In this document: piece by piece, positions 4,914-14,325 of the stretch
Position numbering within the stretch: the first letter of the stretch is position 1
Layout: each line of letters begins with the position of its first letter
Origin: Solirubrobacteraceae bacterium
GTDB taxonomy: Bacteria; Actinomycetota; Thermoleophilia; Solirubrobacterales; Solirubrobacteraceae
Length of the DNA: 32,373 nt
Assembly: GCA_030690545.1 (NCBI GenBank)
Contig: JAUYGN010000086.1
Span: 1 to 32,373, forward strand
Direction: 5' to 3'
Made by a program: the position numbers and the translations under genes
Notes under the pieces: generated by a model
The model's input: only the letters and a program-made list of their open reading frames with translations
What the model was told of the DNA's origin: nothing
Databases searched by the model: none

Positions 4914-5963
4914 TCAGCCCCAGCGAAAGCCGGTCGGCGTCGGTGCCGGCTCCAGCGGGCTGGACGGCAGGCCGGGCGGCGGGTCCATGACGTGAAAGCC
5001 GCTCGGCGACGTGTCGTTCGGCGTGTCGGGATGGAAGATCGAGGCGAGGTACTGGATCTGGCCACGACCGACGCCGAGCTCGAACTGCCCGCCGCCGTAG
5101 GCGCCGATCCCATGCTCGGCGGTGTAGTCGTAGGCGTCGAAGAGCGGCTTGACGCCGCCGAGCCGTGACGGCTTGAGGTTCACCATCCGCGGTGCGAACG
5201 GCAGCCCCTCGATGTCGGCGATCGAGTGGATGTTCGCGTCCCACGTGATTCGGTCGCGATGGGGCACGAGCAGCTCGTCGATCTCGGTCGTCAGCTTCGG
5301 ATCCTCGATCCAGGCGTCGGGGAACGCATCGATGACGCGCACGTAGAGCGCCGGGTCGGCTGGGGCGTCGACGATCGTCCCGGAGTAGAGCCCCTTGAAG
5401 TCGACCGAGTCGACGGCGCCCGTGGCGACGAGGCCCGCGATCAGCTCGTCGTCCCAGGAGGGAGTCGGATCGAGCTTGAAGCGCAGCGTCGGGTAGCGCT
5501 CCAGGCGTCGCGCGACGGGCTCCAGCGTCGGCGGCTCGCCGAGTCGCAGCGAGACGACGAACGTCAGCGGCTGCGGCTCGCGGCCGAGCACCGCGTGCAG
5601 CGGTTCGCCGGCCTGGCGCAGCGCGAGGTCCAGCGCCGCCGACTCGTAGGCCCAGGTGCGATACAGGCGCGAGACGTCGCGCACCGGCTCCTCGGGGAAG
5701 AGGTCGAGCGTGGCGAGATGCTCGGACAGCGAGCGGATCGTCCAGTCGCCCGCGAGCGCCAGCACCGGCCCGGCCCGCTGGGCGATCTCGTGGTCGACGG
5801 CGTCGTAGACGACGTCCTCGCCGAGCCCCTCCTCGCCGTCGCCGTGCAGGCGGATGATCGTCGACTTGCGCTCGAAGTCGCTGGATACGCTCTGCGCGAG
5901 GCCCTCGAGTGCGTAGCCCTCGATCCGGACCGGCAGATCTGCCACGAGGTCATAGGTGCTCAT
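4914..5963 (-). CDS. Enolase-superfamily protein (mandelate racemase / muconate-lactonizing type)
   Basis: 349 residues. The N-terminal capping domain is followed by a TIM barrel with likely catalytic-site segments 'TLRFKLDPTPSW' (Lys strand), 'DAWIEDPKL', 'ITWDANIHS' and 'MVNLKPSRLGG' (Lys near the C-terminal side), plus a glycine-rich 'GIGAYGGGQFELGVGR'. These fit the Lys/Asp/Glu/Lys arrangement of the o-succinylbenzoate synthase and muconate cycloisomerase subgroups, but the metal ligands are not canonical enough to name a substrate. ATG at 5963 is selected because TAGCCT ends 7 nt upstream. It is divergent from the glycosidase lipoprotein (31 bp between starts). No menaquinone or catechol genes are nearby. 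Confidence 0.75.
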   Translation of the reverse strand: MSTYDLVADLPVRIEGYALEGLAQSVSSDFERKSTIIRLHGDGEEGLGEDVVYDAVDHEIAQRAGPVLALAGDWTIRSLSEHLATLDLFPEEPVRDVSRLYRTWAYESAALDLALRQAGEPLHAVLGREPQPLTFVVSLRLGEPPTLEPVARRLERYPTLRFKLDPTPSWDDELIAGLVATGAVDSVDFKGLYSGTIVDAPADPALYVRVIDAFPDAWIEDPKLTTEIDELLVPHRDRITWDANIHSIADIEGLPFAPRMVNLKPSRLGGVKPLFDAYDYTAEHGIGAYGGGQFELGVGRGQIQYLASIFHPDTPNDTSPSGFHVMDPPPGLPSSPLEPAPTPTGFRWG

Positions 5964-5970
5964 GCTTTCG

Positions 5971-5976
5971 AGGCTA
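5971..5976 (-). promoter_or_regulatory. -10 hexamer TAGCCT of the enolase-family gene
   Basis: On the minus strand TAGCCT is followed by 7 nt and then ATG at 5963, the leaderless arrangement seen repeatedly in this window. Confidence 0.5.
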
Positions 5977-5994
5977 CTCGGGCAGGCTGTCGTC

Positions 5995-6945
5995 GTGCAC
6001 CCCGCTCGTCGCCGAACCGCGCTCATCGCTCTGCTCGGCGCGTTCGCGCTGACCCTGAGCGCCTGTGGCGGCGGCGAGGACGATGCGAGCACCGCCACGA
6101 GCGCCGGCGGCGCGACGACGACCGCGCCGGCACCCGGTGGGCTCGTCGTCGGGATCGGCGAGCAGAACTCGCCGATGTTCGCCGACCGGCGCTTCCGCGC
6201 GCTCGGCTTGCGCCACGCTCGCCTCGTGGCGCCCTACGACGTGACGAGCGTGCGCTCCGATCGCGACCTCGTCGATCTCTGGCTGCACAGCGCCCGCAGC
6301 GCGGGCGTCGAGCCGTTCATCACCTTCGGGCACTCCTACCGCGATCCCGACAAGCTGCCGAGCACGACCGAGTTTCGGCGCGCGTTTCGCGCGTTTCGCG
6401 CGCGCCATCCGGACGTGCGGGTGTACGCGCCCTGGAACGAGATCAACCACGCCAGCCAGCCGACGGCGACCGCTCCTCGCCAGGCGGCGGAGTACTACAA
6501 CGTCGTGCGGGCCGAGTGTGCCGACTGCGTCGTGCTGGCGGGTGACGTGCTCGACCAGGCCGGCATGACGCGCTACATCGAGCAGTACCGTCGCCACCTC
6601 GACGGCGAGCCGGCGATCTGGGGACTGCACAACTACGCCGACACGAACCGCTTCCGCTCGACCGGCCTGCGCGACCTGCTGGACGCCGTCTCGGGCGAGG
6701 TCTGGCTGACCGAGACGGGTGGCATCGTGCGCTTCGGCCGCAACTTCCCGTACGACGAGCAGCGCGCCGCGCGCGCCATCGATCAGACCTTCAAGCTCGC
6801 GCTCGCCAGCGAGCGCGTCACGCGGATCTACCTCTACAACTGGACGGGCGCCCAGCCCGACGGCCGCTTCGACGCCGGTCTGACCGGACCCGACGGCTCG
6901 ACACGTCCGGGTCTCGTCCGGCTGCGCGCCGCGCTGCGGCGATAG
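5995..6945 (+). CDS. Lipoprotein with glycoside-hydrolase TIM-barrel fold
   Basis: 316 residues from GTG at 5995. A short signal peptide ends in the lipobox 'LSAC' with Cys24 as lipidation site, followed by a Thr/Ala/Gly-rich linker to about residue 48. The barrel shows 'VYAPWNEINHAS' with candidate acid/base Glu149 and 'EVWLTETGGIV' with candidate nucleophile Glu240. Their spacing and context fit clan-A retaining glycosidases such as the Asl1/PslG-like families. 'YLYNWTGAQPDGRFDAG' near the end is typical too. It is probably anchored outside the membrane and acts on a polysaccharide; the substrate is unknown. A 9-nt tandem repeat around 6376-6402 encodes the Arg/Phe/Ala stretch 'RRAFRAFRARHP'. 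It converges on xseB with a hairpin between. Confidence 0.78.
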   Translation: MHPARRRTALIALLGAFALTLSACGGGEDDASTATSAGGATTTAPAPGGLVVGIGEQNSPMFADRRFRALGLRHARLVAPYDVTSVRSDRDLVDLWLHSARSAGVEPFITFGHSYRDPDKLPSTTEFRRAFRAFRARHPDVRVYAPWNEINHASQPTATAPRQAAEYYNVVRAECADCVVLAGDVLDQAGMTRYIEQYRRHLDGEPAIWGLHNYADTNRFRSTGLRDLLDAVSGEVWLTETGGIVRFGRNFPYDEQRAARAIDQTFKLALASERVTRIYLYNWTGAQPDGRFDAGLTGPDGSTRPGLVRLRAALRR

Positions 6946-6971
6946 CGGCGGCGGCCTGTCAGGCGCCGCCG
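6946..6971. terminator. Terminator hairpin between glycosidase gene and xseB
   Basis: CGGCGGC plus GCCT pairs with AGGC plus GCCGCCG around a 3-base loop (one bulged G), 11 bp in all. It begins right after the glycosidase stop and includes the xseB stop codon, so it can serve both convergent transcripts. Confidence 0.55.
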
Positions 6972-7231
6972 GTGCCGGTGCCGGCCTCCAGGCGCGCGAC
7001 GAGCTCGCCGAGGCGCAGCTCCTCGAGGCCCTCGCCGACGGCTTCGAGCTCGGCCGCGCAGTGCTCGACGAGCGCGCGTCCCTCGCGACAGAGGTCGAGC
7101 GTCTCGCGCAGCCCGGCCGCGCCGGAGTCCAGGCGCTTGATGATCTCCTCCAGGCGCGCCGTCGCGTCCTCGTAGGTCGGGGGCGTCACCGGCTCGGCGG
7201 GCGCTGCGGGCTCAGGCTCGTGCATCGTCAT
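6959..7231 (-). CDS. xseB: Exonuclease VII small subunit
   Basis: About 90 residues. 'TYEDATARLEEIIKRLDSG' followed by 'LRETLDLCREGRALVEHCAAEL' is the helical hairpin of XseB, which wraps the large subunit in the complex that degrades single-stranded DNA into oligonucleotides. The gene overlaps the 3' end of xseA by about 20 bp, showing translational coupling. Start choice is uncertain: ATG codons in frame lie at 7246, 7231 and 7225, none with a strong ribosome site. 7231 gives 'MTMHEPEPAAPAEP' and a moderate overlap. A Pro/Ala/Glu-rich lead precedes the conserved part. Confidence 0.85.
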   Translation of the reverse strand: MTMHEPEPAAPAEPVTPPTYEDATARLEEIIKRLDSGAAGLRETLDLCREGRALVEHCAAELEAVGEGLEELRLGELVARLEAGTGTGGA

Positions 7232-8531
7232 CCGTGATCGTCGCATCCAGCTCGGCGTCGCCGAAGCGCAGCCGCACGTCGCCGGCGCGGCGGGCGGCGC
7301 GCGCGCTCGTCAGCACGTCGCCGCTGCGGTCGGTGACGAGCGCGTAGCCGCGCTCGAGCGCACGCTCGGGGTCGTGCGCGGCGAGCGCCAACGCGAGCGC
7401 GTCCAGCCGCCCTCCGCCGCGTGCCTCGACGGCGCCGGCGTGGGCCTTGCGGTCGAGCACGATCGCCTTGCGCGCGCTGCGCGCATGCTCGGTCTCCAGC
7501 CGCCGCCGGCCGGCGGCGCGGATCTCCCGCAGGCGCTGATGCAGCCGCCGCCGCTCGCCGGCGAGATGCTCCCCGGGTGCGCGCGACAGCCGCGCGAGCG
7601 CCTGCGCGCGATGCAGCAGCGCGCGCCGACCGTGGACGTCCAAGCGCCGTGCGATCGCCAGCACGTCGGCACGCGCCTGTGCGCAGTGGACGGGCAGCGC
7701 CGACTCCGCGGCATGCGTCGGGGTCGAGCAGGACAGCGCCGCGACGTCGTCGATCAGCGTGCGGTCGGTGTGGTGGCCGACGGAGGCGATCACCGGCACG
7801 CCGAGCAGCGCGACGGTGCGGCAGAGCGTCTCGTCGCAGAAGCAGAACAGGTCGGCCAGTGAGCCGCCGCCGCGCGCGACGATGATCACGTCGACCGCGC
7901 CCGTGGCGGTGAGGTCCTGCAGCGCGGCACCGATCCGCGGCGCCGCATGGCGGTCCTGGACGGGCGCGAAGGCCCACACGAGCCGGCCCTGCCAGCCGCG
8001 CCGGCGCAACCCGGCGAGCACGTCGTCGCGCGCCTTGCCGCTCTCGCCCGTGACGACGCCGATCGTGCGGGGCAGCGGCGGGCGCGGCAGCAGCTTCTGC
8101 GGCGCGAACAGGCCTTCGGCGTGCAGCGTCTTGCGCAGGCGATCGAGCTGCGCCAGCAGGTCGCCCTCGCCGGCGACGCGCAGCGCCGTGATCGCGAACG
8201 AGAACGACGGCGACGAGGTGCGGCTGCCGGCGTAGTAGTCCGGCCCGCCCGCGACGACGACCTGCGCGCCGTCGGTGAGCGCCTGGTCGCCGAGCCGCAG
8301 GGCGTCGAAGTCCGTGCGCCACATCGAGCAGGGCACGGCGCCGTCGGCGTCGCGCAGCTCGCAGTAGACCTTCGTCGGACTGACGCGCAGGTTCCAGATC
8401 TCGCCGAACAGCTGCACGCGCGAGCGTGCGCGCAGGTACTCGCGCAGCTTCGCCGCGTATGCGCCGACGCCGAACGGGCCAGGCAGCGGGCTGCCGTCGA
8501 TCCCCGCGGGGCGCGTGCGCGAGTCGGCCAT
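7212..8531 (-). CDS. xseA: Exonuclease VII large subunit
   Basis: 439 residues. An N-terminal OB-fold ('VQLFGEIWNLRVSPTKVYCELRD') is followed by the exonuclease domain with 'TIGVVTGESGKARDDVL', 'VDVIIVARGGGSLADLFCF' and 'GVPVIASVGHHTDRTLIDDVA', all XseA hallmarks. Next comes a long Arg/Ala-rich helical region (about 275-380) that holds the small subunits, and a C-terminal 'ERALERGYALVTDRSGDVLTS' segment. Together with XseB it degrades single-stranded DNA in both directions during repair. ATG at 8531 has TAGACT ending 8 nt upstream and no Shine-Dalgarno. Confidence 0.95.
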   Translation of the reverse strand: MADSRTRPAGIDGSPLPGPFGVGAYAAKLREYLRARSRVQLFGEIWNLRVSPTKVYCELRDADGAVPCSMWRTDFDALRLGDQALTDGAQVVVAGGPDYYAGSRTSSPSFSFAITALRVAGEGDLLAQLDRLRKTLHAEGLFAPQKLLPRPPLPRTIGVVTGESGKARDDVLAGLRRRGWQGRLVWAFAPVQDRHAAPRIGAALQDLTATGAVDVIIVARGGGSLADLFCFCDETLCRTVALLGVPVIASVGHHTDRTLIDDVAALSCSTPTHAAESALPVHCAQARADVLAIARRLDVHGRRALLHRAQALARLSRAPGEHLAGERRRLHQRLREIRAAGRRRLETEHARSARKAIVLDRKAHAGAVEARGGGRLDALALALAAHDPERALERGYALVTDRSGDVLTSARAARRAGDVRLRFGDAELDATITDDDARA

Positions 8532-8539
8532 CGTGCGTC

Positions 8540-8545
8540 AGTCTA
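8540..8545 (-). promoter_or_regulatory. -10 hexamer TAGACT of xseA-xseB
   Basis: Minus-strand TAGACT, 8 nt, then ATG at 8531. It predicts a leaderless xseAB transcript. Confidence 0.55.
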
Positions 8546-8583
8546 GGTTCGCCCCCGCAGCGGCGGCGAGGCCGGGCGGACGG

Positions 8584-8889
8584 CTAGTGCGCCGCGGGAT
8601 CGCCGTGCGGATCGCCCTGGCCGGTGACCGAGGCGAGCGTCTTCATGCCCGGCTCGGCGGCGTGGCCGCGCAGCTCGCCGAGCAGGCCGAGCTCGGTCAG
8701 GCGCGCGATCTCGCGCTCGCCCTCGATCCGCGCCGGGTGGCCGGCGGGCAGGCCGCGCACGAGCTTGGCGATGCGGTTGCGCAGCTGCAGGGCGAAGTGC
8801 GGCGTGGACGCGCCCATCAGCTGGCGCACGTCGTCCAGCGTGACCTCGTGGCCGGGGCGCTGGCGATCGGGATGCTCGGCTTGGCTCAT
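8584..8889 (-). CDS. Conserved-looking small protein of unknown function
   Basis: 101 residues from ATG at 8889. The middle section 'VTLDDVRQLMGASTPHFALQ' followed by 'LRNRIAKLVRGLPAGHPARIEGEREIARLTELGLLGE' reads as alternating amphipathic helices and has normal coding character. The tail is Gly/Asp/His-rich. There is no signal peptide, membrane segment or recognised motif. It lies between the cell-wall-binding lipoprotein (55 bp upstream) and xseA (52 bp downstream), all on the minus strand. A TAACCT hexamer at about 8966-8971 inside the end of the lipoprotein gene could start its transcript. No function is proposed. Confidence 0.6.
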   Translation of the reverse strand: MSQAEHPDRQRPGHEVTLDDVRQLMGASTPHFALQLRNRIAKLVRGLPAGHPARIEGEREIARLTELGLLGELRGHAAEPGMKTLASVTGQGDPHGDPAAH

Positions 8890-8944
8890 GGCGCGAGGAC
8901 TGCTGCCCGAGGCATGCTGACTGCCGTGCCGTGCCGGCGCGACA

Positions 8945-10138
8945 TCAGCCCGTCGGGGGATCATCGAGGTTACCTGGAAGCTGCTCCTGGACGATCTCCA
9001 GCAGCGCGTCGATCCGCGCCTGCGCGGCGACGGAGACCGATTCCGTGGTGCCGATGATCCAGCCGTGGTTGTAGACGCCGGCGACCGGATCGGTGCGAAA
9101 CGCGGGCTGGGTGTCGAGCAGCTGGCTGAGCAGCGGCTGGGGCAGGCGGACCGCGTCGTCGAGCAGGAACAGCGGGCCGTAGCTGCCGGCGCCCGACAGC
9201 GGTGCCGCCGCGGCGGCGTTGAGCGGGCGGCCGGTGCGCATGAAGACCATCCCGTGACCGGGGTTCGCGACGCCCCAGCCGAACGTGTCGTTGCGATAGC
9301 GCGCGAACTCGATCGCGTTCGTGACCGGATCCTGTCCGCCGGTGCGCTCGACGGTGCCGAAGCGCCTGAGCTGCCTGGTCACTGCGGGCGAGATCAGCTT
9401 GGACGGGCCGAGGATGAAGATCCGCGGCTTGGACGCCAGGCCGGAGAGCGCGGTCAGCGCCGCGCGCGTCTCGGGCGGGATCTCGTCCTTGGTGACGAAC
9501 AGGATCGGGTCGCCGGACTTGGCGGCGTACCCGGCGGCGGGCATCGCGAACGCCGGGTCGTCGGAGCTGGCGATGATGATGTCCGACGCGGTGCCCGGTC
9601 GCGACGAGCGGATCAGCTCGGCGATCGAGCGCGTCAGCGCAAGCGGGTTCGCACCCGCCAGATCGGTCGCCTTGTAGCCGGCCGGCTGGGCGACGTCGCC
9701 GACGCGGATCACCTGTCCGTTGCCCGCTGCCCGCGAGCCGGTCGGTGCGAGCACGCGGAGCGCGTCGAGCGACGGGCCGGGCAGGGTCGTGCCGTTGCTG
9801 AAGAGGATCGGCGCTCGGAACGGCTCGGCCATCAGCGCGGAGGCGGCGAGCGCGACGCGCCAGTCGCTGCTGTCGACGATCGTCACGGCGCGCGGCTTGC
9901 GGGCCGGGTCGGGAAAGACCGCCCGCGCGATCGCGGCGGCCGTCTGCGTCGGATCGGTGCTCGGCACGCGGGTCGTGTTCTTCGTCGCGGCCTCCGGGAA
10001 GCCGAGGTTCTCCTTGGCCTGGCTCGGCGGCGCCAGCAGCGCCGGCTGCGCGGGGTCGTCGGAGCGCACCTCGCGGCCACAGCCGGCCACGACAAGCGCG
10101 GCGAGCAGCAGGAGGACGACGCGGCTCGGTCGAGGCAT
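8945..10138 (-). CDS. Lipoprotein with cell-wall-binding-repeat-2-like domains
   Basis: 397 residues. Signal sequence 'MPRPSRVVLLLLAALVVAGC' ends in lipobox VAGC with Cys20. After a linker, 'DPTQTAAAIARAVFPD' is followed by three similar alpha/beta blocks, each ending in a phrase such as 'RAPILFSNGTTLP', 'GDPILFVTKDEIPP' or 'YGPLFLLDDAVRLP' and a later 'RIFILGPSKLISPAV'. This is the pattern of the CW_binding_2 family found in actinobacterial and clostridial surface proteins that attach to cell-wall polymers. Being lipidated, it is probably membrane-anchored rather than a free S-layer protein. ATG at 10138 follows TAATGT by 7 nt. The family call rests on pattern, so moderate confidence. Confidence 0.65.
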   Translation of the reverse strand: MPRPSRVVLLLLAALVVAGCGREVRSDDPAQPALLAPPSQAKENLGFPEAATKNTTRVPSTDPTQTAAAIARAVFPDPARKPRAVTIVDSSDWRVALAASALMAEPFRAPILFSNGTTLPGPSLDALRVLAPTGSRAAGNGQVIRVGDVAQPAGYKATDLAGANPLALTRSIAELIRSSRPGTASDIIIASSDDPAFAMPAAGYAAKSGDPILFVTKDEIPPETRAALTALSGLASKPRIFILGPSKLISPAVTRQLRRFGTVERTGGQDPVTNAIEFARYRNDTFGWGVANPGHGMVFMRTGRPLNAAAAAPLSGAGSYGPLFLLDDAVRLPQPLLSQLLDTQPAFRTDPVAGVYNHGWIIGTTESVSVAAQARIDALLEIVQEQLPGNLDDPPTG

Positions 10139-10145
10139 CGGCGGC

Positions 10146-10151
10146 ACATTA
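10146..10151 (-). promoter_or_regulatory. -10 hexamer TAATGT of the cell-wall-binding lipoprotein gene
   Basis: Minus-strand TAATGT, 7 nt, then ATG at 10138. Confidence 0.55.
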
Positions 10152-10311
10152 GCGGGAGCCGCGGCTCCAGAACTCCACCCGGAGCCTCGACGCGTTCGCC
10201 CGCTCCGTGCTCGTCGCCGGTCCTCCTGCCGGCGTCGCCGGTTCGCCTCCTGCGCGGGCGGGTGCCTCGCGCCTGCTAGAAAGATCACAACCACCACCCC
10301 CAGGAGGCACG

Positions 10312-12021: not shown

Positions 12022-12927
12022 CTACGTCGCGGCCAGCGTGCCGCGCTGCAGGTCGCCCTCGAGGCGCATCAGCTGCTCGATGCGCTGCTCCATCGGCGGG
12101 TGCGTCGAGAAGAGCCCGGCGATCTTCTTGCCGGGCGATGCGATGAAGAACGCGCTCATCTCGTTGGCCACGCGCAGGTCCTTCTGCGGCAGGCGATCCA
12201 TTCCGGAGGCGATCTTGCGCAGCGCCGACGCCAGCGCGCTGGGCCGGCCGGTGACGAGCGCAGCGCCGCGGTCGGCGACGAACTCGCGGTAGCGCGACAG
12301 CGCCATCATCAAGAAGAACGAGACGACGTAGACGACGAGCGAGACGAGCAGGATCGCGAGGATCCCGGGACCGCTGTCGTTGCTCTGGCGGCCGCCGCCG
12401 AAGAGGAAGCCGAACTGCAGGATCATCGCCGCGATCGAGGCGAAGAACGAGGCGATCGTCATGATCATCACGTCGCGGTTCTTGACGTGCGCGAGCTCGT
12501 GCGCCATGACGCCCTCGAGCTCGGCGGGCGACAGCAGCTTCATGATCCCGGTCGTCGCGCAGACCGTTGCGCTCTTCTGCGAGCGACCGAGCGCGAAGGC
12601 GTTGGGCATGTCGGTGTGGGCGACGGCGACCTTCGGCTTGGGCAGGTCGGCTTGGATGCAGAGCCGCTCGATCATCGCGTGCAGCTCGGGAGCTTCCTGG
12701 GGCGTCACCTCGCGGGCGCCCATCGCATGCAGCGCCAGCTTGTCGGAGCTGAACAGCTGCGCCGCGGCGAGACCGACGGCGACGATCACGATCAGGCCGG
12801 CGTTGACGCCCGCGGCGAACAGCACGCCGACGAACACGACGTACACCGCACCGAGCAAGAACAGCGTGAGCAGCATCCGGACCTGAAGCCCGGTATCGCG
12901 CGAGAACGTCGTCTTGGTGACAGCCAT
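12022..12927 (-). CDS. htpX: Membrane zinc metalloprotease HtpX
   Basis: 301 residues. Two N-terminal membrane helices (about 15-37 and 42-58), then 'HAMGAREVTPQEAPELHAMI' and the M48 zinc site 'VMAHELAHVKNRDV' (His143, Glu144, His147). Two further membrane segments (about 155-175 and 188-210) precede 'YREFVADRGAALVTG' with the third zinc ligand Glu215. It degrades misfolded membrane proteins during envelope stress. Start ATG at 12925-12927 has no good ribosome site, and an imperfect CAGAAT lies just upstream, so it may also be leaderless. It is first gene of the htpX-pspAB pair and divergent from the M23 endopeptidase. Confidence 0.95.
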   Translation of the reverse strand: MAVTKTTFSRDTGLQVRMLLTLFLLGAVYVVFVGVLFAAGVNAGLIVIVAVGLAAAQLFSSDKLALHAMGAREVTPQEAPELHAMIERLCIQADLPKPKVAVAHTDMPNAFALGRSQKSATVCATTGIMKLLSPAELEGVMAHELAHVKNRDVMIMTIASFFASIAAMILQFGFLFGGGRQSNDSGPGILAILLVSLVVYVVSFFLMMALSRYREFVADRGAALVTGRPSALASALRKIASGMDRLPQKDLRVANEMSAFFIASPGKKIAGLFSTHPPMEQRIEQLMRLEGDLQRGTLAAT

Positions 12928-12979
12928 GCATCCATTCTGCCAAACGCGCAGCGGTGGCTCGCCGCACGCCGGTCGCTGC

Positions 12980-13092
12980 TAGGGTCCGGTCACGGATCTC
13001 CCTGCAGGTGGGGGACGACGAGCCCGCTGTTTTCCGCGAGACGCAAGGGCGCTCGCAAGGCTCCATAACCCGAGGTGACGGTTTGATCCGCT
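12980..13092 (+). promoter_or_regulatory. Promoter plus structured 5' leader ahead of the M23 gene, candidate riboswitch-like RNA
   Basis: TAGGGT at 12980-12985 resembles the -10 elements of this window but has no start codon close behind it, so it should make an untranslated leader. The RNA can fold into a closed junction. Outer stem GTCAC (12989-12993) pairs with GTGAC (13075-13079). A hairpin forms from TCTCCC (12997-13002) with GGGGGA (13010-13015). A third helix pairs GAGCCC (13020-13025) with the segment at 13048-13054. The unpaired 'ATAACCCGAG' stretch precedes the closing strand. Cell-wall hydrolase genes in actinobacteria often sit behind c-di-AMP riboswitches, and GGGGGA and AACCCGA recall that class, but its conserved GCTAAC element is missing. 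Identity is open. Confidence 0.4.
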
Positions 13093-13106
13093 GTGCAGCG
13101 CGAACC

Positions 13107-13112
13107 TAGACT
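13107..13112 (+). promoter_or_regulatory. -10 hexamer TAGACT of the M23 endopeptidase gene
   Basis: TAGACT, 10 nt, then ATG at 13123. It would allow a second, leaderless transcript that bypasses the structured leader. Confidence 0.5.
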
Positions 13113-13122
13113 CAGCGGTCGC

Positions 13123-14325
13123 ATGCGCGTCCGCATCCTCCTGACAGCCGTCGCGCTGCCGCTGCTGCTGTGGGCGGTGCTGCCGCTGCCGTCCGCCGGC
13201 CAGTCCAAGCAGCAGGAGCTGCAGGAGCTGCAGTCGAAGATCAACGACGCGCGCTCCAAGATCGGCAAGAAGCGCGGCACCGAGCGGGCGCTGAACGCCG
13301 AGATCGCGGGCTACGACCGGCGCATCAAGCGCCTGCAGGGCAGGATCACGACGCTGCAGGTCCGCCAGCAGCGCGTTCAGGTCGACCTCGACGCCAAGCG
13401 CTCGGAGCTCGAGAGCCTGCGCGGCGATCTGCGCGGCGAGCGCGCCCGGCTCGTGCGCCTGCGCGCCCGTCTGACCGAGACGCGTACGCAGCTGCGCAAG
13501 CGGCTGGTGGAGATCTACAAGGCCGAGCCGCCGGACATCGTCACCGTCGTGCTGAACTCCGACGGCTTCACGGACCTGCTCGAGCGCAGCGAGTTCATCA
13601 AGCGCATCTCCGACCAGGACCGCAAGATCGTGACGATCGTGCGCGACGCGAAGGCCGACTCGACCGCCAGCGAGAAGCGCCTGGCAAAGCTCGAGCGCCG
13701 CCAGCGGACCGTCACGGCGATCGTCGAGAAGCGCCGCGACGAGATCTCCGACGTGCGGATGGAGCTCGTCGGCACGCGCGTCGGCTACACCCGCACGAAG
13801 GACGGCAAGGCGGCGGCGCTGAGCAACGTGCGCTCCGAGCGCAAGCAGCTCGAGAGCCACGTCAGCGGTCTCGAGGCGGCGTCGCGGAAGATCGCCGGCC
13901 AGCTCAACGCCGCGCAGGGCCAGTACGCGGGCGAGCTGCCGCGGCGCGGCAGCGGCAGCATGATCTGGCCCGTCAATGGTGCCCTGACGTCGCCGTTCGG
14001 CCCGCGCTGGGGACGCCTGCACGCCGGGATCGACATCGGCGCGGCCGAGGGCACGCCGATCCATGCCGCGGACTCCGGCCGCGTCGTGCTGATGCAGAGC
14101 ACCGCCGCGTCGGGCGGCTACGGCAACTACACCTGCGTGCAGCACACGTCGACGATGTCGACGTGCTACGCGCACCAGTCGCGCTTCAGCACGAGCCTCG
14201 GCGCGAGCGTCAGCCGCGGGCAGGTGATCGGCGCCGTCGGCAACACCGGCAACTCGTTCGGCGCGCACCTGCACTTCGAGGTGCGCGTCAACGGCTCGCC
14301 CGTGAACCCGATGGGCTACCTGTAG
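13123..14325 (+). CDS. Secreted M23 endopeptidase with coiled coil (EnvC/NlpD-like)
   Basis: 400 residues. A signal peptide (about 1-26, 'LLTAVALPLLLWAVLPLPSAG') is followed by a coiled coil from about 28 to 275, rich in Lys/Glu/Gln/Arg. The C-terminal LytM/M23 domain contains 'RLHAGIDIGAAEG' (zinc ligands His300 and Asp304) and 'GAHLHFEVRVNGSPVNP' (His382, His384). All ligands are present, so it may be an active peptidoglycan hydrolase; coiled-coil relatives act with or activate other hydrolases at division. ATG at 13123 is chosen because a -10 hexamer lies at 13107; an upstream GTG at 13093 would read through it. Divergent from htpX, followed by lgt. Confidence 0.92.
   Translation: MRVRILLTAVALPLLLWAVLPLPSAGQSKQQELQELQSKINDARSKIGKKRGTERALNAEIAGYDRRIKRLQGRITTLQVRQQRVQVDLDAKRSELESLRGDLRGERARLVRLRARLTETRTQLRKRLVEIYKAEPPDIVTVVLNSDGFTDLLERSEFIKRISDQDRKIVTIVRDAKADSTASEKRLAKLERRQRTVTAIVEKRRDEISDVRMELVGTRVGYTRTKDGKAAALSNVRSERKQLESHVSGLEAASRKIAGQLNAAQGQYAGELPRRGSGSMIWPVNGALTSPFGPRWGRLHAGIDIGAAEGTPIHAADSGRVVLMQSTAASGGYGNYTCVQHTSTMSTCYAHQSRFSTSLGASVSRGQVIGAVGNTGNSFGAHLHFEVRVNGSPVNPMGYL

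What the first reader, a model, noticed from the sequence alone, without database searches (positions are those of the whole stretch)
12980..13122. Structured leader between htpX and the M23 endopeptidase gene
A TAGGGT promoter-like hexamer is followed not by a start codon but by about 95 nt that folds into a closed junction (stems 12989-12993/13075-13079, 12997-13002/13010-13015, 13020-13025/13048-13054). A second TAGACT sits at the gene start. Actinobacterial cell-wall hydrolases are often controlled by c-di-AMP riboswitches, but the diagnostic 3' GCTAAC element is missing, so this may be a divergent or distinct regulatory RNA. Two transcripts, one with and one without the RNA, are predicted.
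Basis: partly seen in the sequence, partly recalled or inferred. Interest (0 to 1): 0.55.

Follow-up and report, generated by a model that had tools for sequence, protein, structure and literature searches.

The report
Decayed c-di-AMP riboswitch at cell-wall gene
The leader before this cell-wall hydrolase gene looks like the worn-down front end of a known RNA switch (the c-di-AMP riboswitch) that relatives still carry intact at the same place, next to a second promoter that lets the gene do without it.

Summary
It is not a working c-di-AMP riboswitch. The same htpX–M23 gap in relatives shows what it probably is. Intact RF00379 riboswitches precede the same M23 gene in many relatives, 9 of 50 inside this gap. 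The genus leaders retain the riboswitch's 5' hairpin domain just after the first −10: joint score 82.6 against 53.6±3.2 for column shuffles, 0/1000. The window's own copy is the most eroded (24/1000). All later aptamer parts, including GUCAGCUAAC, are gone; in two congeners the whole leader is deleted. Downstream lies a second, near-leaderless promoter (CATAAC, TTGATC-18-TAGACT, ATG) that also sits behind intact riboswitches in relatives, plus a GCA-N9-GCA repeat in 30 of 45 gaps. A sister family shows intact, degraded and truncated riboswitches around one nearly unchanged hairpin.

The parts
12022..12927 (-). htpX (Peptidase_M48), divergent neighbour; conserved anchor of the gap
   Evidence: PF01435, E 7.4e-38; divergent htpX next to M23 in 50 of 80 GTDB loci
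12980..12985 (+). TAGGGT, likely -10 of the upstream promoter P1 (riboswitch promoter in relatives)
   Evidence: Congeners TAAGGT and CAGGGT at the same place; TACCCT / TAGGTT 8-16 nt before the intact riboswitches in L236 and L301. No consensus -35
12990..13026 (+). Remnant of the 5' hairpin domain of a c-di-AMP riboswitch (hairpin arms 12997-13002 / 13010-13015, loop TGCAGGT)
   Evidence: Joint column-shuffle test of four congeners 0/1000, 0/1500 with the first reference set; G000 alone 24/1000; R2 best hit in the gap is 12997-13015, 2.0 bits, E 0.39, not significant alone
13043..13057 (+). GCA-N9-GCA direct repeat (13043-13045, 13055-13057), candidate regulator site
   Evidence: GCA-N9-GCA in 30 of 45 gaps; the other 21 spacings from 3 to 24 in 0-8 of 45
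13064..13069 (+). CATAAC, start of the conserved P2 block
   Evidence: ATAA-N10..14-TTG(A/G)-N14..21-TAnnnT in 14 of 79 upstreams, shuffles mean 0.01, max 1; pattern drawn up after seeing the sequences
13083..13112 (+). Promoter P2: TTGATC (13083-13088), 18-nt spacer, TAGACT (13107-13112)
   Evidence: Conserved in five of seven genus members within the P2 block; best-conserved part of the gap by DNA search (positions 83-171 of the query)
13123..14325 (+). M23 peptidase (Peptidase_M23 plus PcsB-type coiled coil), ATG about 4-5 nt after the P2 start expected by spacing
   Evidence: PF01551 E 4.1e-30; PF24568 E 1.8e-07

Best explanation
The leader is the decaying remains of a c-di-AMP (ydaO-type, RF00379) riboswitch. 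The ancestral layout was promoter P1, riboswitch, then a second promoter P2 whose transcript starts almost at the ATG and so bypasses the riboswitch, then the M23 gene. In this genus everything after the 5' hairpin domain has been deleted; in the window the remaining hairpin is eroded, and in two congeners the whole leader is gone. Shown: intact riboswitches at the orthologous place in relatives; significant similarity of the genus leaders, as a set, to those riboswitches' 5' domains and not in neighbouring stretches of the same gaps; loss of every later aptamer element; conservation of the P2 block. Inferred: that P2 drives most expression, that P1 transcripts no longer respond to c-di-AMP, and that bypass by P2 made the riboswitch dispensable. 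c-di-AMP signalling itself remains: the genome has five other RF00379 riboswitches and one diadenylate-cyclase domain.
For: RF00379 at the same gap: L124 69.5 bits, L089 52.1; L302 66.1, L236 64.7, L225 61.0, L301 60.0. Family model R1: 12 of 60 upstream regions; 24 of 80 GTDB loci at 54 bits or more plus degraded L232 at 25.4; setting side by side, 9 of 50 htpX-M23 gaps intact (L178, L205, L219, L221, L222, L225, L227, L229, L236). Similarity: sum of mean local scores of G000, G003, G002, G005 to 11 locus-linked 5' domains 82.6 against 53.6 +/- 3.2, 0/1000; against 26 riboswitches of other places 67.6 against 57.9 +/- 2.8, 2/1000; htpX-proximal and ATG-proximal stretches of the same gaps score 54.6 and 57.0. 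G005 aligns to an intact 5' domain over 31 nt starting at GCTGA. Independent parallels: Conexibacter L236 intact against L237 remnant with the same P2 block; in family f2, ten loci share a nearly identical hairpin CCTGCATAA..GGTARAC before M23, 2 intact, 1 degraded, 7 truncated. Bypass promoter behind intact riboswitches: L205, L219, L229, L236. Other riboswitches and a DAC domain in G000.
Against: For the window's own sequence alone the signal is weak: local alignment of the whole gap 75/200 by mean and 190/200 by maximum, per-sequence 24/1000 on the shorter leader, R2 2.0 bits with E 0.39, nhmmer no hit, R1 nothing. R2 also fails to reach significance in G002 (5.1 bits, E 2 in 6.9 kb) and reports nothing inside the gaps of G003, G005 or L090 at E <= 5. 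The claim therefore rests on congeners plus synteny. CCTGCA in the hairpin also resembles an inverted half of the GCA repeat, so part of the likeness could come from operator sequence. The four leaders and the references were chosen after inspection.
Confidence: 0.72

Rival explanations
1. Ordinary upstream promoter region: the gap holds only DNA elements (GCA-N9-GCA repeat, CATAAC block, two promoters); the hairpins are chance in GC-rich DNA and there is no riboswitch ancestry in this genus.
For: Fold no better than shuffles; window copy not significant by covariance model; most conserved part is the P2 promoter block; GCA-N9-GCA strongly phased.
Against: The joint column-shuffle test, 0/1000, with controls in neighbouring stretches at null level; G005 and G003 individually at 0/1000; intact riboswitches at the same place in relatives.
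Confidence: 0.2
2. A divergent but working c-di-AMP riboswitch, or another ligand-sensing RNA.
For: c-di-AMP riboswitches control cell-wall peptidase genes in Actinobacteria (PMC9960051, passages seen); same genomic place; third stem kept in two congeners with one two-sided change.
Against: No RF00379 at E <= 10; the unfiltered R1 scan shows no aptamer; GUCAGCUAAC, GGGGYGAAUC and the middle hairpins are absent; closing stem not kept in congeners; leader deleted in G001 and G004.
Confidence: 0.05
3. The 5' hairpin is a kept, reused element (mRNA 5' stabiliser or protein site) rather than a fading relic. This does not exclude riboswitch ancestry; it is a rival only to 'decaying'.
For: Family f2 keeps a nearly unchanged hairpin in 7 truncated loci, five of which fold clearly better than shuffles (z -2.65 to -4.56).
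Against: In the window's genus the hairpin sequence drifts, folds at z +0.68, -1.34, +0.55 and +0.01 in G000, G003, G002 and G005, and is lost in others.
Confidence: 0.1

Closest known systems
c-di-AMP riboswitch (ydaO/yuaA leader, Rfam RF00379)
   Same: Same place before the same M23 gene in relatives; 5' domain (GCCGA/GCTGA, hairpin with CCCTGCA loop, GGGAA) recognisable across the genus
   Different: Window copy lacks every later aptamer part and scores at noise level; no RF00379 hit
C. glutamicum nlpC c-di-AMP riboswitch (PMC9960051, passages seen)
   Same: c-di-AMP riboswitch in front of a cell-wall peptidase gene that is also under several transcriptional regulators
   Different: Working, ligand-responsive, peptidase of NlpC/P60 type; here the riboswitch is broken down and the peptidase is M23
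Direct-repeat operators of OmpR/PhoB-type response regulators (recalled, not tested)
   Same: Phased short direct repeats near the promoter of cell-wall hydrolases
   Different: 12-nt period and GCA core match no motif I could name; regulator unknown

Membership tests
c-di-AMP riboswitch RF00379 | Covariance-model match at or above the curated score (38 bits) | tested here: not met
   none in the window; five elsewhere in the genome (49.5-77.5 bits)
c-di-AMP riboswitch RF00379 | 5' domain: GCCGAA, hairpin, G-rich strand GGGGGACC | tested here: inconclusive
   Genus set significant (0/1000); window copy alone 24/1000, and 2.0 bits with R2
c-di-AMP riboswitch RF00379 | Middle core GGGGYGAAUC and following hairpins | tested here: not met
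   Absent from the sequence; unfiltered R1 scan finds nothing
c-di-AMP riboswitch RF00379 | 3' GUCAGCUAAC strand and closing stem | tested here: not met
   Absent; CATAAC is a separate element, both occur in L236, L219 and L205; closing stem not kept in congeners
c-di-AMP riboswitch RF00379 | Specific binding of c-di-AMP | not testable with these tools
   needs in-line probing
Descendant (remnant) of RF00379 | Orthologous position: between htpX and M23, just after the first -10 | tested here: met

The most novel reading that the evidence does not exclude
Loss of this riboswitch stops repeatedly at the same point: the 5' hairpin outlives the aptamer, and in family f2 it is kept nearly unchanged inside newly formed closing stems. 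The shortened hairpin may then be a new, compact regulatory RNA (a mini-riboswitch, a protein site or a 5' stabiliser) derived from a riboswitch, and the window's genus would hold a late stage of the same process.
Probability: 0.2. Interest if true: 0.65.

Novelty: new variant of a known kind. Interest (0 to 1): 0.42.

Why it matters
How riboswitches disappear is rarely seen step by step. This locus offers intact, degraded, truncated and deleted states of one riboswitch in front of one orthologous gene, with a built-in bypass promoter that could explain why loss is tolerated. It also warns that leaders near riboswitch-regulated genes may be relics rather than new RNA classes.

Tried and rejected
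Rfam at gathering score and at E ≤ 10 for the gap: nothing relevant. Thermodynamic fold as evidence: rejected, no better than shuffles. First riboswitch alignment A2: discarded, because loci of minus-strand matches were not oriented; redone as A3. nhmmer with the 5' domain: no hits in the genus. R1 and R2 covariance models on the window gap: not significant; told as evidence against. R2's structure came from RNAalifold and includes three outer pairs that I doubt. Idea that CATAAC is the degenerate GCUAAC: rejected, both occur together in L236, L219 and L205. Idea that the whole gap is a coding extension of the M23 gene: rejected, in-frame TGA at 13084 (sequence; the ORF starts at GTG 13093). 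Two-mismatch pattern search in the window's family: 23 of 146 genomes, about as many as the reversed-pattern control, taken as chance. Row L256 of A6 and L217:1400-1440 were wrong stretches and were not used. Literature; these searches listed no held paper on decay of a c-di-AMP riboswitch or on riboswitches of Solirubrobacter beyond one Mycobacterium genome paper; only open-licence PMC papers are held.

Full report
What is there. The window lies in a 3.53-Mb, 149-contig genome (G000, contig 39); relatives found by its M23 protein are mostly named Solirubrobacteraceae / Solirubrobacterales MAGs. Between divergent htpX (12022-12927) and an M23 peptidase gene (13123-14325) lie 195 bases.

Is the fold special? 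No. Three stretches of the leader fold no better than dinucleotide shuffles (z +1.22, +1.24, +0.68). Rfam gives no match at gathering score for the whole window, and for 12900-13250 at E ≤ 10 only an irrelevant miRNA family at E 7.

Genus comparison. A DNA search finds only positions 13042-13130 well conserved in congeners. The gap is 195, 191, 195, 178, 126, 68 and 68 nt in the seven genus genomes (G000, G002, G003, G005, G006, G004, G001). The junction as drawn is therefore not conserved.

What stands there in relatives. RF00379 is present in 146 of 146 genomes of the family; G000 has five (49.5-77.5 bits) and one diadenylate-cyclase domain (6 of 7 genus genomes). In front of the orthologous M23 gene, a model of 28 family riboswitches (R1) finds hits of 64 bits or more in 12 of 60 upstream regions and of 54 bits or more in 24 of 80 GTDB loci, plus a degraded one at 25.4 bits (L232). 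The two sets overlap in genomes: L089 and L178, and L124 and L205, are the same loci. L089 and L124 were in the training set, but Rfam's own model confirms them (52.1 and 69.5 bits), as it does L225, L236, L301 and L302 (60.0-66.1 bits). Setting beside the list, nine of 50 htpX-M23 gaps hold an intact riboswitch. R1 sees none in the window gap.

Remnant test. The congeners' leaders line up with the riboswitch's 5' domain where it should be, just after the first −10 (shuffles scoring at least as high by mean: G002 1/200, G003 18/200, G005 31/200, G000 75/200). Because congeners share ancestry, I permuted whole alignment columns of the four leaders together: observed 71.2 against about 54±3 for the first reference set (0 of 1500 over three block sizes), and 82.6 against 53.6±3.2 for 11 riboswitches linked to this locus (0/1000). 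References from 26 riboswitches of the general set give a weaker signal (67.6 against 57.9±2.8, 2/1000), and the htpX-proximal and ATG-proximal parts of the same gaps stay near null (54.6 and 57.0). Per sequence: G000 24/1000, G003 0, G002 2, G005 0. By a covariance model of the 5' domain (R2) the best hit in the window gap is the right hairpin, 12997-13015, but at 2.0 bits (E 0.39), and G002 reaches 5.1 bits (E 2). The window copy alone would not prove descent; the genus set plus position does, in my judgement.

Parallel cases. Conexibacter L236 has −10, intact riboswitch, P2 block and ATG; Conexibacter L237 has −10, a CCCCTGCAAA hairpin remnant, P2 block and ATG (RF00379 in L236 only). In sister family f2, the pattern CCTGCATAAMNNNGGTARAC (≤ 1 mismatch) occurs in 10 of 31 genomes and in 0 of the other 201 of the order (the reversed control hits 2 genomes). 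All ten lie before M23 next to htpX: two inside intact riboswitches (L301, L302), one in a degraded one (L295, R1 25.4 bits, probably the same locus as L232), seven in leaders with no RF00379 at E ≤ 1. Of the seven, five fold clearly better than shuffles (z −2.65 to −4.56), two do not (L300 −0.73, L296 +1.09).

The rest of the gap. Two DNA elements are conserved. GCA-N9-GCA (13043-13057 in the window) occurs in 30 of 45 gaps shorter than 400 nt; the other 21 spacings tested occur in 0-8. The P2 block, ATAA-N10..14-TTG(A/G)-N14..21-TAnnnT shortly before ATG, occurs in 14 of 79 upstream stretches (78 of the 80 GTDB loci plus the window; two loci without upstream sequence were left out) against a shuffle mean of 0.01 (pattern written after seeing examples). 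It lies behind intact riboswitches in L205, L219, L229 and L236. P2 would start transcription about 4-5 nt before the ATG by normal spacing, hence without the riboswitch. The consensus promoter scan finds nothing at its strict thresholds, so promoters rest on conservation.

Mechanism. Most likely P1 once made a c-di-AMP-controlled leader transcript and P2 an uncontrolled one. c-di-AMP riboswitches act on cell-wall peptidase genes in Actinobacteria, for example nlpC of C. glutamicum, a gene with several further regulators (PMC9960051, passages read). With P2 in place the aptamer could be lost: in this genus down to its 5' hairpin, or altogether. Use of the promoters and loss of the c-di-AMP response are inferred, not shown.

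Verdict. Not a new RNA class and not a working riboswitch at this place; a decayed variant of a known one, with an instructive series of states in relatives.

Noticed in passing
L293, L294, L296-L300 (family f2), near locus position 1501: Seven truncated leaders keep an almost unchanged 20-nt riboswitch hairpin (CCTGCATAA..GGTARAC) before M23; outer stems of differing sequence seem to have formed around it, and five of seven fold clearly better than shuffles. Candidate compact RNA derived from a riboswitch.
   Followed up: partly
window 13043-13057 and 30 of 45 htpX-M23 gaps: GCA-N9-GCA direct repeat with sharply fixed spacing; in many loci its second half lies about 20 nt before the -10. In the L203-L208 type riboswitches the repeat overlaps the riboswitch's 3' end. 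Regulator unknown.
   Followed up: partly
L219, L236, L234, L205 upstream of M23: The P2 block contains what looks like an 11-nt-period direct repeat (e.g. GTGAACC-N4-GTTGACC) over the -35, as for a PhoB/OmpR-type regulator (likeness recalled, not tested).
   Followed up: no
L150:1501-1646 and downstream; window 5000-10200: In G066 (L150) a c-di-AMP riboswitch precedes an NlpC/P60-like gene (named by eye) about 8.6 kb upstream of M23; several other relatives have riboswitches 4-8 kb upstream of M23. That protein has no match in the window, which holds no RF00379 at all.
   Followed up: partly
L240:1366-1408: A gap that keeps only the riboswitch's 5' domain plus GGGGGACCC (R2 19.8 bits, E 0.0064) directly before the gene's -10: another truncation state.
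   Followed up: no
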